From Symmachiella macrocystis (lineage in GTDB: Bacteria > Planctomycetota > Planctomycetia > Planctomycetales > Planctomycetaceae), in the NCBI RefSeq assembly GCF_007860075.1, contig NZ_SJPP01000001.1, forward strand, positions 1,510,501 through 1,574,500: DNA of 64,000 nucleotides. The letters run 5' to 3'. The first letter of the stretch is position 1. The number at the start of each line of letters is the position of its first letter. Positions 21,263-28,265 of the stretch are shown here, piece by piece. The notes under the pieces are model-generated. The model ran no database searches and had not been told where the DNA came from. It worked only from the letters and a program-made list of their open reading frames with translations. The position numbers and the translations under genes are program-made.

Positions 21263-22954
<1,692 letters not shown>

Positions 22955-22984
22955 GCAACTGCCGGATCAGCAATGACAGATTTC

Positions 22985-23023
22985 AGCCACCGTAAGCCAT
23001 ACGCTTGCGGTGGCTGTATTTTT
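22985..23023 (+). terminator. Rho-independent terminator of the sigma factor gene
   Basis: AGCCACCGTAAGC (22985-22997) pairs with GCTTGCGGTGGCT (23003-23015), a 13-pair stem with a five-base loop, followed by GTATTTTT. It lies 31 bases past the stop codon and works only on the forward strand, since the other side lacks a T run. Confidence 0.9.
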
Positions 23024-23070: not shown

Positions 23071-24240
23071 TCATTGCCCTGCGGAGCGGCTACCGTCGGG
23101 CGAACCGGCGATGGGAATACCCTCCGGCAAGGGGCGAGCTGCGACGTTGAAGCCGTTGGCGTGCACGACCGTTTGCAATTCGCGAAACAAGCCGAAGCTG
23201 TCGGGGTAGACCCACATGGTGAGGGTCGTCTCAGGTGGGGCGCCTTTGAGGACTTCCACAAATCGCGATCCAACGCGGAGCGCTTCCTCGGCGGTTTCCG
23301 CATCCACCTCCGATGTCACTTGCATCTGCCACGCTGTCACCGCAACGCGGAACATTCCCGGACCGTGCTTCAACTCATCGACCATCGACAATGGCTTGCG
23401 TTCGACGAGGTAGCGCATGCGGTAACCTTCAATGGGCCCAATGAATCCTTGATGCGTGCGTGTCCGCGAGAGCAACGCGCGGCGGTGCCCGAGATGGGTT
23501 TTCAAACTATCGATCAACTGTTTGAGCGGAACGTAGGAAATACGATTGTTTTCGAGACGAAAGTGGTATTCCTCTCCCTCGACAATTTGGCTGACCGGCG
23601 TCAGCTTGTGGATGATTTCTTTGACTGGCGGTCGTTGGGTATCGCGGGTTTTGATTTCGTCGGCCAAGATCGCCAAGTGCGTCATATCGTCCGCAACGTT
23701 CTGCTTGCGCGCGTTGAGCTCTGCCGTTTGCCGATCCACCTGGGCGCGGATCTGCTTCGACTCTTTTCGAGCTGCCGTTGCCGCTGCCGCGAGTTCGTCT
23801 TGCGAGGCAATGGCACTGGCAAGCTGCGGCGTGACATCTGCGACGTCGCGATTGAGTTTGTCAATCTCTCGCTGCAGTTGTGTGATGTCGGCCAGCAATT
23901 GTGGAGAAGGTTGCGGCGGCCGGACCGGCTCCGGTTTTGGCTTGGGTTCGACTTTGACAACAGGGGGGGGCGGTTCGGGCGGTAGCACTTCCTCGCTGGG
24001 TGATTCCGTGGCAGCGCCCATTGCCACTTCGATCTTGGGTGGCGGTTCCACAACAATCGGCGCGGGCACGGGTTCAGCGGGGATTGCCGCCGTTTCGGTC
24101 TCCGGAGTGGCCGGCATCTGGCTCACCCGGACTCCGGCAATCACGATGAGGATGATCAAGATTCCAACGATGTTGGCAATGATATCCAGAAACGAGTCGG
24201 ATCCCGATTCCAGATCACCCTTTTTGCGACGGCGGCTCAT
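23071..24240 (-). CDS. TolR/MotB-type single-helix protein with membrane aspartate (motor operon, third gene)
   Basis: The ATG at 24240 overlaps the stop of the upstream gene (ATGA) and follows a perfect AGGAGG at 7 bases. The 389-residue protein has one N-terminal helix beginning FLDIIANIVGILI, whose Asp19 sits where TolR, ExbD and MotB carry the ion-binding aspartate. A Pro-rich linker and coiled coil (about 110-200) follow. The periplasmic domain (about 215-375) has RISYVPL and MWVYPDSFGLFRELQTVV. This domain resembles that of the preceding gene product (RFLP; LIVRPEGSVTYYMARKFL). It most likely forms the force-transmitting rod of an ion-driven motor with the ExbB-like protein. It carries no recognisable OmpA peptidoglycan-binding motif. 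Confidence 0.8.
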   Translation of the reverse strand: MSRRRKKGDLESGSDSFLDIIANIVGILIILIVIAGVRVSQMPATPETETAAIPAEPVPAPIVVEPPPKIEVAMGAATESPSEEVLPPEPPPPVVKVEPKPKPEPVRPPQPSPQLLADITQLQREIDKLNRDVADVTPQLASAIASQDELAAAATAARKESKQIRAQVDRQTAELNARKQNVADDMTHLAILADEIKTRDTQRPPVKEIIHKLTPVSQIVEGEEYHFRLENNRISYVPLKQLIDSLKTHLGHRRALLSRTRTHQGFIGPIEGYRMRYLVERKPLSMVDELKHGPGMFRVAVTAWQMQVTSEVDAETAEEALRVGSRFVEVLKGAPPETTLTMWVYPDSFGLFRELQTVVHANGFNVAARPLPEGIPIAGSPDGSRSAGQ

Positions 24241-26681
24241 CGGGAGACCTCCTGTTTTGTTCCAACAGCGGCTGCCTCTCCGTAAGTCGTCTTAGTCGAA
24301 AGTCCCCCCTTGCGGAGCGCCTGTTCGATTGGCTTGGAAATATGGACCGCTTGCGACGAGACGCGAAATCTGACATAGGGAACCCAATAAAATCCCGAGG
24401 GGGGATCGCCCCACGTCTTGGCGTTTTCATCAATGTCCACGATCACCGCGCGCACCACTTGTTGCTCTGTTTCCCCATGTCCAAGAACGATCGCCATCTC
24501 CAACTTACCAACTTGGATGCGGTCAGGCGTGACCACCACGTTGACAGACCGTTCGATACCGATTCCCGCGCGGCGCGACAAACCCCAGCCTCGCTTGGAT
24601 AGATTCTTTTGCATCCGATCCATTTGTTGTTGACGGTTGAGGGTCAACTGCGGCAAAGTGGGTTGGCCTTGCTGTCCAATCGCCGACGGCGATGACGTTC
24701 CGCCAGCTTGCGGAGATTTTGGTGCAGAGTTTTGCCCCGGCGAGCCTGTCGAACGACCGACGTAAGGCGCTTTGGCCAATTCGTTTCCAGTGGGATGCGC
24801 TTGAGGGCCTGCTTGTCCGCGGCCCGGTTTTCCATCGCTCGAAGGAGATTGCGGTCCACGCGCATTCGCCTCTGTGCTGGTTTGCGGCGGACTTCCCGGT
24901 TGCCCCCCTTGCTCTGTCGAGCCGGTTTGCCCGCTGTTGTTGCCGCTCAGATTCTGCTCAAGCGGGTTGCGAGTTCCCGCCTGCGTTGGATCGAGATCAT
25001 CGAACAGCGGAGAGGTGCCGTTGTCGCTATCCGAGGGCTGTCGATTGCCCCCCGAGGACTGTGGATTCCCGCCGGGCGATTGCGTCCTGCCGGAGGCCTG
25101 TGGGTTACTCCCCTTAGGTCCCAGTCCAGCGAGGCTTGCCGCTTGGTCTTCGTTTGCAGCTCCTCGGCTCCAACCCGGTTCCAAGGCCTGCGCGTCGGAC
25201 GGGGAGAGGAAGCGTCGCGGGATTTCACCGGCGTGCTCAAAGGCGTCGGTCGGATCTTCTGCCGGTGCACGGGTCGCTGGGATTTGATGCCCGCCCGGAT
25301 TCTTAGAGCCGTTTTGACCGTACTGCGACGGAACTTCATCCCATCCCGGCAACGATGATTGCGGATTCTGTTTCGGCTGTGTTGGTTGCAAGCGACGTCC
25401 GCCTGGTCCGCGACCCTGAGTTCTGGGCCCCTGAGTCCCGCGACTAGCTGACCCCCTGCCCCCCGAAGCATTTCCCTGTTCGGCAATGCGACGACGATGC
25501 CGACGAGCTTTTGCCGCAAAGCGTGAGGCGTTGGAGGTCCCTTGAGAGAATGGCAGTTCCGGGTCGGCCATTTCTTCCTCGTCAGGAAACTCGGACAATG
25601 CATCCATGCTGCCGCGGACCGCGTATTTGCGAATCACGTCGCTACGATTTTTGAGTGATTCTGCAATGGCTTGTCGCAAAACTTGCTGTGCTTGAGGATC
25701 AGCGGCCGGTAATTCCCAGGCGAAGTCTTCTTCGATCAATTCATAGCCGTAGGGCTCTTGCCATTCGGTGAGAAATTTGCGGGCCATATAATAGGTCACA
25801 CTCCCTTCGGGCCGCACGATCAACATGACATACGGTTCCTCCGCGTTCAGAGCGTTCGGCGCATTGGCTAACCGGGTCCAATGGTCGTTCAGCGCCCGGA
25901 CCCCGGCCAGCAACGGGTTGTAGCCATCGGTGAATCCTTCCAATTGCGACGGCCCGAGAAAGACGTTTTCCGGGAGAAAACGGATACCCTTTTTTGTGCA
26001 TTCGACAAAAATGGGCCGCCGCGTTGTTCCTTGACGACCGTCGTAGGGAATCAACGCATATTTACTGGGCGACGTAGCTCGGCGATTTTCCAGTTCCTCC
26101 AATTTCTCTTCCGTTTTGCGGATTTTCAACAACAACCGCTTCCGCTCCGCTTGAATTTCCTGGCTCTCATCGCCAACGCGCGATTGATCGGTCTGCAATT
26201 TGTCCAGCGCTGCCTGTTGTTGTTTCAGATCCTGCCGCGCGGCATCCAATGCGCGCTGGGCTGCCAACAATTCCGCGGACTGTTCAGCCAGTTGTTGCCG
26301 GCGGCGCTCTTGCTGAATTTTCAAATCCGCGATTTGGCGGCGGAGTTTGATATTGGGATCCGGCACGGTGATGAGCGGTGGGATCGGTTTGGGTTCCGGC
26401 GGCGGTTCGACTTTGGGAAGGACCACAACAAACTCCGGCGCGGCGTCGAGCGTCTCGCGATCCGGCGATTCATAGGGGGCGACCTCGATAAACGGATTGG
26501 GTGTGGGGGTTGGCTCTGGGGCTTTGACTTCCACAACTTTTTTCTTCTGCGCCGACTCATCACCGATCATTTGTGTGGTGACGATCAACAAGAAGATCAG
26601 CGCTCCCATCGCGCACACCAAAACCGCCAAAAACGGAAATAGCGAGACGGTCAAATTAGAGCGTGATGGACGGCGGCTCAT
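24237..26681 (-). CDS. TolR/MotB-like single-helix protein lacking the membrane aspartate (motor operon, second gene)
   Basis: The 814-residue protein begins MSRR like its neighbour, and its helix (SLFPFLAVLVCAMGALIFLL) aligns with the neighbour's so that Ala19 replaces the ion-binding Asp19. A Pro-rich linker and a coiled coil (about 105-205) follow. The periplasmic domain (about 210-345) has RPIFVECTKKGIRFLP and LIVRPEGSVTYYMARKFL. A long Gln/Pro/Gly/Ser-rich disordered stretch (about 385-650) precedes a C-terminal beta-rich domain (about 680-800, VNVVVTPDRIQVG and FYWVPYVRFRVSS). It is probably a second, non-conducting stator or rod subunit of the same complex. The disordered part could cross the cell wall or periplasm. 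Confidence 0.8.
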   Translation of the reverse strand: MSRRPSRSNLTVSLFPFLAVLVCAMGALIFLLIVTTQMIGDESAQKKKVVEVKAPEPTPTPNPFIEVAPYESPDRETLDAAPEFVVVLPKVEPPPEPKPIPPLITVPDPNIKLRRQIADLKIQQERRRQQLAEQSAELLAAQRALDAARQDLKQQQAALDKLQTDQSRVGDESQEIQAERKRLLLKIRKTEEKLEELENRRATSPSKYALIPYDGRQGTTRRPIFVECTKKGIRFLPENVFLGPSQLEGFTDGYNPLLAGVRALNDHWTRLANAPNALNAEEPYVMLIVRPEGSVTYYMARKFLTEWQEPYGYELIEEDFAWELPAADPQAQQVLRQAIAESLKNRSDVIRKYAVRGSMDALSEFPDEEEMADPELPFSQGTSNASRFAAKARRHRRRIAEQGNASGGRGSASRGTQGPRTQGRGPGGRRLQPTQPKQNPQSSLPGWDEVPSQYGQNGSKNPGGHQIPATRAPAEDPTDAFEHAGEIPRRFLSPSDAQALEPGWSRGAANEDQAASLAGLGPKGSNPQASGRTQSPGGNPQSSGGNRQPSDSDNGTSPLFDDLDPTQAGTRNPLEQNLSGNNSGQTGSTEQGGQPGSPPQTSTEANARGPQSPSSDGKPGRGQAGPQAHPTGNELAKAPYVGRSTGSPGQNSAPKSPQAGGTSSPSAIGQQGQPTLPQLTLNRQQQMDRMQKNLSKRGWGLSRRAGIGIERSVNVVVTPDRIQVGKLEMAIVLGHGETEQQVVRAVIVDIDENAKTWGDPPSGFYWVPYVRFRVSSQAVHISKPIEQALRKGGLSTKTTYGEAAAVGTKQEVSR

Positions 26682-26795
26682 TCCGGTTTCCGCTAGGGAG
26701 GGAGGACATCAACCCAACAGGCAAGCTGTGTGAGGCGATGTTGAAAGTCGGAGACAACCTGCTGGGGACAATTTGCGACTTCAAGACTCGAAACA

Positions 26796-28265
26796 CTACG
26801 CCGCTTTGCTGCGGACCGTTAACAAGTGCACCGCTGCGCTGAGGTTGTGCAGCGTTTCGTCAAACGCTTCGACGGAACGAATGGCGCTGAGGTTTTCGGC
26901 AAGTGTTCCCTGCAGACGCACTAGGTTTTCTTCCTGTTCGACGATGCGGGACAACAACTCCCCTTGATGCTGCAGTTGCCCAACCTGAGCCGTCATCGCT
27001 TGTGAAGCGGTGCTCAGTTCTGAATTCCAGTGTTCGGCGGTCGAAGAAATCGAGGTGGTGATCTGTTCGGTTTGCACCTTGAGATCGTCTCGCACAGTGG
27101 CAATTTGATTGAACAACAATTGTCGCTGCTCATCCATCGATTCCTGCGCGGCTCGTTGTTGTTCCGTCATGGATTCGCGCTGGGCATCCATCATGCTGGC
27201 GATTTGCTGTGAGACACCTTGGTAACCGCTGAGCAGTTCTTGGCGAGCTGTGGCCAATTGCTGGGCGTGGTCGGCCAACGTCGACTCCGTCCCGGCGTGC
27301 AGCGAGGCGGCTAGGGAGGACTGTTGTTTCTCCATGGTCTCCGACCACCGCTCGCGCAATTGCCCGAGATTCGTTTGCCAAGCGTCCGCATGCTGGGCGA
27401 CGATGGCTTCTGTTTGAGTCAGCAACTGTGCAGCCGCCTGTTGTTCGGCTTGCAGCAACGGACTGGTCGCATCCGTCTCTGGGAACCAACTGCTAATGTG
27501 ATTGAAGGCGAGTTCGTCGACTTCGTGCAAAATGTTCTGTTCTGATTTCTCAACCCAAAAGGTCAAGAAGACGAGCACTAACGTCAGCCCCAAACCGAGT
27601 GTGGTGGTATCGAAGGCAATTCCCAAACCACCGGTCACTTTGTCCATCGAGGAGGTGAGTTGCTCCGGTTTGACATTGGCAATCGCGATCGTGATCCCCA
27701 TCACTGTGCCCAAAAAACCCAAAATGGGAATCGCCCAAGTGATGGTGCGGATCAGGCTGTAGCTTTCGTGTAAGCGTTCCGACCCGATATCCGAGAGGTA
27801 CTGTTGATGTTCGTATAGGTTTTTTGTTGAGCGCAATCCCCGCACGTTTTGGCAGACTTCGGCGATGCGGCGTACTATAAAAGTGCGTTGAATCCGCCGG
27901 GGGAGTTCGCAAACGACAACCATCATCCGTGTGGCATTTTGCACGGCGTCGTCGGTTTCGCCCGGCAACTCATAAAGTCGTTGTAGTTTCAAAGCCCGTC
28001 GTTGTGTGGTAAGCGAGAGGGCCTTCATCGCCAAAATCGCGATGCCCAAAAAGAACAACGTCGTCTCGGTATAGGACAATATATGCCCCGTGCAATACCG
28101 GCGGGCGAGCGCCTGTTGCACGGGTAGATAAGGCAACGCCGCATAGAATCCGGCGGTAAGCGCTGCCCCCCAGAGCACGGGGGACATGAAAATCGTATCC
28201 AGCCAACCTCGGCTTTTGAGCGTGAGGTTGTCGAGATTATTCCCGGTCGATGTTTGCGTCGCCAT
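26796..28265 (-). CDS. MotA/TolQ/ExbB-type proton channel protein with long coiled-coil tail (motor operon, first gene)
   Basis: The 489-residue protein has four likely membrane helices (about 28-50, 66-85, 173-195, 208-235). The last two carry the family signatures WAIPILGFLGTVMGITIAIANV and GLGIAFDTTTLGLGLTLVLV, with the conserved Gly and Thr residues that line the ion path. A long Gln/Glu/Ala-rich coiled coil (about 270-470) follows in the cytoplasm, as in ZorA-type proteins. ExbB, TolQ and MotA pentamers convert proton or sodium flow into rotation of a dimeric partner. The two TolR/MotB-type genes follow in the same direction after 114 bases. No TonB, Tol-Pal, chemotaxis, Zorya or gliding genes are nearby. 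Confidence 0.9.
   Translation of the reverse strand: MATQTSTGNNLDNLTLKSRGWLDTIFMSPVLWGAALTAGFYAALPYLPVQQALARRYCTGHILSYTETTLFFLGIAILAMKALSLTTQRRALKLQRLYELPGETDDAVQNATRMMVVVCELPRRIQRTFIVRRIAEVCQNVRGLRSTKNLYEHQQYLSDIGSERLHESYSLIRTITWAIPILGFLGTVMGITIAIANVKPEQLTSSMDKVTGGLGIAFDTTTLGLGLTLVLVFLTFWVEKSEQNILHEVDELAFNHISSWFPETDATSPLLQAEQQAAAQLLTQTEAIVAQHADAWQTNLGQLRERWSETMEKQQSSLAASLHAGTESTLADHAQQLATARQELLSGYQGVSQQIASMMDAQRESMTEQQRAAQESMDEQRQLLFNQIATVRDDLKVQTEQITTSISSTAEHWNSELSTASQAMTAQVGQLQHQGELLSRIVEQEENLVRLQGTLAENLSAIRSVEAFDETLHNLSAAVHLLTVRSKAA

What the first reader, a model, noticed from the sequence alone, without database searches (positions are those of the whole stretch)
23071..28265. Three-gene ion-motor operon with two unequal TolR/MotB-type subunits
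One ExbB/TolQ/MotA-type channel gene is followed by two single-helix genes that both start MSRR and align across the helix. One keeps the ion-binding Asp19 (FLDIIANIVG); the other has Ala19 at the same place (FLAVLVCAMG). Their periplasmic domains are also alike (RFLP and LIVRPEG versus RISYVPL and MWVYPDSF), so they are paralogues. In described systems (TolQR, ExbBD, MotAB, GldLM, ZorAB) the rod partner is a homodimer carrying Asp on both chains. A conducting/non-conducting heterodimer would make a stator with one active site per rod pair, and the second protein adds a 260-residue disordered stretch that could span the periplasm. The channel protein has four membrane helices and a ZorA-like coiled-coil tail. 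No Tol-Pal, TonB, gliding, chemotaxis or Zorya genes are near.
Basis: partly seen in the sequence, partly recalled or inferred. Interest (0 to 1): 0.82.

Follow-up and report, generated by a model that had tools for sequence, protein, structure and literature searches.

The report
Planctomycete ion motor, mismatched rod pair
A three-gene bacterial envelope motor, conserved across planctomycetes, is built from one channel protein and two different rod proteins, one of which normally lacks the acidic residue that binds the driving ion, so it looks like a naturally lopsided version of ion-driven motors that are usually assumed to have two equal rods.

Summary
Three adjacent minus-strand genes encode a MotA/TolQ/ExbB-type channel (A) and two single-helix rods: B with Ala19 and C with Asp19, aligned in register. 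The trio recurs in over 100 loci of many Planctomycetota families. C keeps Asp wherever it can be read; B is Ala, Ser or Thr in 80 of 89 non-redundant type-1 loci, and Ser in every readable type-2 trio, a deep sister form reaching other classes. All 45 distinct canonical ExbD rows from the same genomes keep Asp. B and C are paralogues by profile comparison.

The split is not absolute. New here: trio channels carry a TM4 Asp (D219) absent from canonical ExbB and ZorA. Most loci where B has Asp pair with a different channel lineage with Asn219. The link is suggestive only: independent events are too few for significance and several loci break it.

Best reading: a 5:2-class motor with a hetero-rod (5A:1B:1C) and one ion-binding Asp per rod pair. 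Complex, stoichiometry and rotation are inferred; cellular role unknown. New variant of a known kind.

The parts
26796..28265 (-). Gene A: channel subunit, 489 aa, MotA/TolQ/ExbB type with long C-terminal coiled-coil-like tail (cytoplasmic by inference)
   Evidence: Pfam PF01618 43.8 bits; matches in 77 of 99 relatives
27564..27755 (-). Channel TM3-TM4 with GFLGT187V and AFD219T220T221; T187/T221 align with the conserved Thr of canonical channels
   Evidence: Alignment with six own-genome MotA/ExbB-type channels; T187, T220, T221 invariant in alignment A3
27609..27611 (-). Asp219 of channel TM4, an acidic residue typical of trio channels
   Evidence: D in most trio channels, hydrophobic or aromatic in six own-genome channels; W/L in the ZorA-type solved sequences
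24237..26681 (-). Gene B: rod without the Asp, 814 aa
   Evidence: ORF; conserved in trios
26577..26633 (-). B transmembrane helix (FLAVLVCAMGALIFLLIVT) with Ala19 at 26625-26627
   Evidence: Hydropathy; register with C Asp19
26073..26354 (-). B coiled-coil-like segment, about residues 110-203
   Evidence: Coiled-coil-type profile hits
25737..26015 (-). B proximal periplasmic domain, strand order beta-beta-beta-alpha-beta-alpha-beta (residues about 223-315)
   Evidence: AlphaFold2, pLDDT mostly 80-98
24645..25463 (-). B disordered linker, about 273 residues
   Evidence: pLDDT below 50 over model residues 204-476
24282..24635 (-). B distal domain with the same order of elements as the proximal one (residues about 683-800)
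   Evidence: AlphaFold2, pLDDT 84-95 over most of it; the whole B model has TolR 5by4 at rank 9, prob 0.84, E 0.11
23071..24240 (-). Gene C: rod with the Asp, 389 aa
   Evidence: ORF; conserved
24136..24192 (-). C transmembrane helix (FLDIIANIVGILIILIVIA) with Asp19 at 24184-24186
   Evidence: D19 invariant in A1; 41 of 41 and 75 of 75 readable loci
23131..23571 (-). C periplasmic domain, ExbD-like strand order with a large insertion
   Evidence: AlphaFold2 mean pLDDT 84.3, pTM 0.79
22984..23016 (.). 14-bp inverted repeat between C and the convergent sigma-factor-like gene; possible shared terminator
   Evidence: Pattern scan; the number of such patterns in the region is not above chance

Best explanation
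The trio is a 5:2-class ion-driven motor whose inner rod is a heterodimer. Five copies of A form the channel ring; one B and one C helix sit side by side in its pore (inferred). C Asp19 is the only rod carboxylate and binds the driving ion against ring threonines T187/T221 (inferred from the equivalent residues of TolQR and ExbBD). In most members the ring carries its own TM4 carboxylate, Asp219, which may make a second rod Asp unnecessary or unfavourable. Force leaves through the periplasmic parts: C ends in one ExbD-like domain, while B has one near the membrane and a second on a tether of about 270 residues, long enough to reach peptidoglycan or the outer membrane. Shown: gene order, conservation, residue states, paralogy of B and C. 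Inferred: complex formation, 5:1:1 stoichiometry, ion flow, rotation. Cellular role: mechanical work in the envelope, not identifiable from the neighbours.
For: Trio kept as a unit in all 41 loci first read and in almost all others with enough sequence. C Asp19 wherever the residue is readable; B non-acidic in 80 of 89 non-redundant type-1 loci and in all readable type-2 loci. B helix positions 15-18, 20 and 26 are invariant in alignment A2, as expected for a helix with fixed packing. B and C homologous in helix and periplasmic domain with residue 19 in register. Channel threonines conserved. B Ala-to-Asp reversals arose at least three times on the rod trees and, except L094, pair with Asn219 channels; 3 independent pairs agree, 0 oppose. 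All 45 distinct canonical ExbD rows from the same genomes keep Asp, including both genes of tandem pairs.
Against: The link of B and C to ExbD/TolR is not significant by sequence profile (C2 helix vs ExbD helix 20%, E=0.001), and no fold hit passes E 0.001. The Asp219/B19 link has p=0.25 on independent pairs, Asn channels are one clade, and N/Ala occurs in five type-1 loci and N/Ser in one type-2 locus. My own prediction of Asp219 channels for the L084 and L086 genomes failed.
Confidence: 0.55

Rival explanations
1. C forms an ordinary homodimeric rod in the pore, and B is a TonB/TolA-like force transducer that docks on the outside of the channel ring and reaches outward through its disordered linker and distal domain.
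For: B has the outline of TonB/TolA: helix, proline-rich and disordered stretch, distal globular domain. An outside helix needs no Asp. A vWA transducer docking on a TolQR-like motor has been proposed in the PVC group (PMC12204202).
Against: The B helix is homologous to the C helix in register and follows the ExbD pattern (FPFLAV over TPMIDV). No conserved His is seen in the B helix (own reading of the sequences). Type-2 B has no disordered linker. Repeated reversal to Asp at exactly position 19 makes most sense if that position faces an ion site.
Confidence: 0.2
2. B and C form separate homodimeric rods that share one channel protein: C rods make active rings, and B rods make inactive or regulatory rings.
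For: One channel gene serves two rod genes, the open question also for AglR with AglQ and AglS (PMC9389320). In some genomes the channel gene is detached from the rods.
Against: Strict one-to-one pairing of B and C genes, often overlapping or nearly so, suggests equal amounts used together; an inactive ring kept for so long needs a special reason.
Confidence: 0.12
3. The system is not a rotary motor but a gated ion channel, envelope tether or sensor built from the same parts.
For: No function is known. B and C match no known rod family. The channel tail gives only coiled-coil-type matches.
Against: The channel threonines and C Asp19 are invariant in the alignments, the signature of coupled ion flow in MotAB/PomAB, ExbBD and TolQR (PMC12965293, PMC6677748).
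Confidence: 0.13

Closest known systems
ExbB-ExbD and TolQ-TolR (5:2 ion motors)
   Same: MotA_ExbB channel domain with the two conserved threonines; single-helix partner with Asp in the same frame; ExbD-like order of strands and helices in the modelled periplasmic domains
   Different: Two different rod genes, one normally without Asp; acidic residue in channel TM4; long coiled-coil-like channel tail; B with two domains and a long linker; no significant profile link to ExbD
AglR-AglQ-AglS of Myxococcus gliding motility
   Same: One channel with two MotB-like partners; hetero- or homodimer still unknown (PMC9389320)
   Different: Both AglQ and AglS keep the Asp; no gliding genes were seen as conserved neighbours here
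[quoted passage not shown]
   Same: Unequal pair of rod genes beside one channel gene, also in Planctomycetes
   Different: The TPH-vWA pairs are described with one Asp per monomer; vWA and TPR genes are not conserved neighbours here; whether those PVC loci overlap with these trios was not tested
ZorA-ZorB of Zorya defence
   Same: Channel with long cytoplasmic tail; weak profile hits to ZorA
   Different: Far below the ZorA cut-off, no conserved partner genes, residue 219 is W or L in ZorA-type sequences, two rod genes, and near-universal presence in the family, unlike defence islands

Membership tests
MotA/TolQ/ExbB channel family | PF01618 match above curated cut-off | tested here: met
   43.8 bits vs 22.9
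MotA/TolQ/ExbB channel family | Conserved threonines on the two pore helices | tested here: met
   T187, T220/T221 invariant and aligned with own-genome channels
MotB/TolR/ExbD rod family | Membership by curated profile (PF02472 ExbD, MotB, TolR) | tested here: not met
   No Pfam or NCBIfam ExbD/TolR/MotB hit for B or C
MotB/TolR/ExbD rod family (rod C) | Single helix with the essential Asp | tested here: met
   D19 in all readable loci
MotB/TolR/ExbD rod family (rod B) | Single helix with the essential Asp | tested here: not met
   Ala in the window; non-acidic in 80 of 89 type-1 loci
MotB/TolR/ExbD rod family | TolR/ExbD fold of the periplasmic domain | tested here: inconclusive
   Same order of elements in the models; TolR 5by4 rank 9, prob 0.84 but E 0.11 for B; no TolR hit for C
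5:2 rotary motor | Five channel subunits around two rod helices | not testable with these tools
5:2 rotary motor | Rod is a homodimer | not testable with these tools
   Two rod genes exist; assembly unknown
Zorya | ZorA match above curated score and conserved Zorya partner genes | tested here: not met
   ZorA 24.2 vs cut-off 100 bits; no conserved neighbours
TonB/TolA transducer (for B) | TonB/TolA family match and SHLS-type helix with His | tested here: not met
   No TonB/TolA Pfam hit; no conserved His in the B helix by reading the helices listed

The most novel reading that the evidence does not exclude
The motor family has moved one of its two essential carboxylates from the rod to the channel ring: rod B lost Asp19 when the ring had gained Asp219, and B takes Asp back in lineages that acquire a ring with Asn219. 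The result is an asymmetric rotor, one ion-binding rod helix and one silent one, with a changed number of ion-driven steps per turn.
Probability: 0.35. Interest if true: 0.85.

Novelty: new variant of a known kind. Interest (0 to 1): 0.7.

Why it matters
Whether both rod aspartates are needed in a 5:2 motor, and whether they act in turn, is an open question; recent TolQRA structures show the two Asp in unequal environments (PMC12965293). A natural motor with one Asp-bearing and one Asp-free rod, in which Asp has reappeared several times, makes that directly testable by comparing closely related natural variants. It also exposes a large, conserved envelope machine of planctomycetes with no assigned function and no profile in Pfam, NCBIfam or PADLOC for its rods.

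Tried and rejected
Profile search of B and C against Pfam, NCBIfam and PADLOC: only coiled-coil noise. Profile search against PDB sequences: coiled-coil noise for B and C, ZorA-type sequences for A. Fold search of the C domain: no TolR, no hit below E 0.001. Direct profile comparison of B or C with canonical ExbD: right register but not significant. Neighbour clustering: nothing conserved. A strict D/A rule for the pair: rejected, because B=Asp exists. A strict exchange rule between channel 219 and B 19: rejected as a rule, because N/Ala, G/Ala, D/Asp, E/Asp and N/Ser combinations exist; a prediction that the L084 and L086 genomes have Asp219 channels failed, while the prediction for L112 (non-acidic channel) held. 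Two essential-gene papers (Planctopirus, Verrucomicrobium) do not mention ExbB/TolQ/MotA-type genes in their main text.

Full report
CHECK OF THE OBSERVATION. A matches Pfam MotA_ExbB at 43.8 bits; B and C match no ExbD, TolR or MotB model. Each rod has one strong helix at residues 17-35. All three genes are under purifying selection (dN/dS 0.05, 0.13 and 0.10 against the same-genus genome G001).

CONSERVATION. A channel relative at E<=1e-15 was found in 77 of 99 relatives, including every one of the 60 other same-family genomes listed, though some of these are distant matches that may be other channel lineages. All 41 loci read in full had A, B and C in this order, with non-acidic B (Ala, Thr or Ser) and Asp in C. 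A scan of GTDB species representatives found 430 relatives of C; of the 80 kept, all but one carry planctomycete labels, the exception being an unnamed bacterium. In a phylum sample of 294 genomes, 53 matched the C profile. A second, deeper form (type 2) has a channel that often begins with a zinc-ribbon-like motif, a short B of about 270 residues and a C of about 375; it reaches more distant families of the phylum (f47 and f55), always with Ser in B and Asp in C where both were read. As a control, canonical ExbD genes of the same genomes, often in tandem pairs, kept Asp in 52 of 52 aligned rows (45 distinct rows).

PARALOGY AND REGISTER. Profile comparison of the helices aligns B Ala/Ser19 with C Asp19 (type 2 E=2.4e-7, type 1 E=3.1e-5), far better than 40 column-shuffled controls (best 0.021) or reversed profiles. 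Periplasmic domains: B1-B2 E=3e-8, C1-C2 E=1.7e-12, B2-C2 E=3.8e-6, while the direct B1-C1 comparison is not significant. The ExbD register is the same (FPFLAV over TPMIDV) but not significant.

FOLDS. The C domain models well (pLDDT 84, pTM 0.79): strands and helices in the ExbD order with a large insertion. B, modelled from residue 204 on, contains two confident domains with the same order of elements, joined by about 270 disordered residues. The fold search of B ranks E. coli TolR (5by4) ninth, with the joint highest probability of the list (0.84) but E=0.11, among many ribosomal and RNase H-like folds; nothing is significant. The C search gave no TolR. I treat the ExbD-like fold as likely, not shown; the ExbD topology itself is from general knowledge.

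THE SPLIT IS NOT ABSOLUTE. Placing residues by profile in all loci shows B with Asp in L094, L095, L112, L125, L127, L140, L141, L145 and L152. On trees of B and of C these form at least three separate origins nested among Ala lineages: the L125 clade (sisters L135 and L139), L127 (near L085) and L095/L112; L094 is a fourth. Remote trios of more distant families (L222, L266, L262, L265) carry Asp on both rods. The most economical history is an ancient Asp/Asp pair, loss of Asp in B on the way to types 1 and 2, and several later returns; the direction of the earliest step is inference.

THE CHANNEL CARRIES AN ACID. Trio channels have AFD219TT in TM4. The six other MotA/ExbB-type channels of the window's own genome have hydrophobic or aromatic residues there, and the ZorA-type solved sequences have W or L. 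In the L125 clade and in L127 the usual upstream channel is missing and a different channel lineage with AFNTT lies downstream of C; in L095 it lies convergent to C, and in L112 elsewhere in the genome. Counts over 89 non-redundant type-1 loci (channel 219/B19): D/A 69, N/D 8, N/A 5, D/T 4, D/S 1, G/A 1, D/D 1. All type-1 Asn channels form one clade. On the rod trees about three independent contrasts go the same way and none the other, p=0.25. I had predicted Asp219 channels for the L084 and L086 genomes and found Asn219, so the link is a tendency at best. MAG contamination could affect single cases where the channel is on another contig.

HOW IT MAY WORK. In TolQR the ion path is thought to use TolR D23 with TolQ T145/T178, in ExbBD D25 with T148/T181, and the two rod Asp are in unequal environments (PMC12965293); in PomAB the threonines are essential (PMC6677748). 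By motif, T187 and T221 of A take these places and C D19 that of the Asp. With B Asp-free, a B-C heterodimer would offer one ion site per rod pair. Why B stays Asp-free when the ring has Asp219 is open; a shared electrostatic budget of the pore is the simplest idea. By helix geometry Asp219 need not face the lumen, and this was not tested. The distal B domain on its tether is a plausible anchor in the cell wall or outer membrane (inference).

WHAT IS KNOWN. A review says it is unknown whether AglQ and AglS pair with each other (PMC9389320). [quoted passage not shown] I found no account of a rod lacking Asp or of a channel Asp of this kind, but the library holds only open papers. The class is therefore known, and this variant appears new.

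VERDICT. Real, conserved and unusual; the hetero-rod with one Asp is the best explanation at about 0.55; the relocation of the carboxylate is the most novel reading at about 0.35.

Noticed in passing
L226:4071-5759, L221:2259-4016, L223:3611-5158: Type-2 trio channels begin with a zinc-ribbon-like motif (MYFKFxCPxCGxxLK...CPYC), unusual for a membrane channel.
   Followed up: partly
window 22984-23016: 14-bp inverted repeat followed by a T run between C and the convergent sigma-factor-like gene 21263-22954; may end both transcripts.
   Followed up: no
L296-L299: The Asn219 channel gene stands alone in these genomes, away from any rod genes.
   Followed up: yes
G000:C1:696331-696570, G002:C45:18843-20999: Open frames of 2100 to 3547 codons contain short ExbD-profile matches; nature unknown.
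   Followed up: no
L135, L141, L145: MAGs labelled Candidatus Kuenenia stuttgartiensis carry trios that group with Planctomycetaceae and are probably mislabelled.
   Followed up: no
L262, L265, L267: Remote trio-like loci have Glu at the channel 219 position; in L262 and L265 both rods also carry Asp.
   Followed up: partly
L003, L002, L005 and other loci: Canonical exbB-exbD1-exbD2 operons with two different Asp-bearing ExbD genes are common in these genomes and may also be hetero-rod motors.
   Followed up: partly
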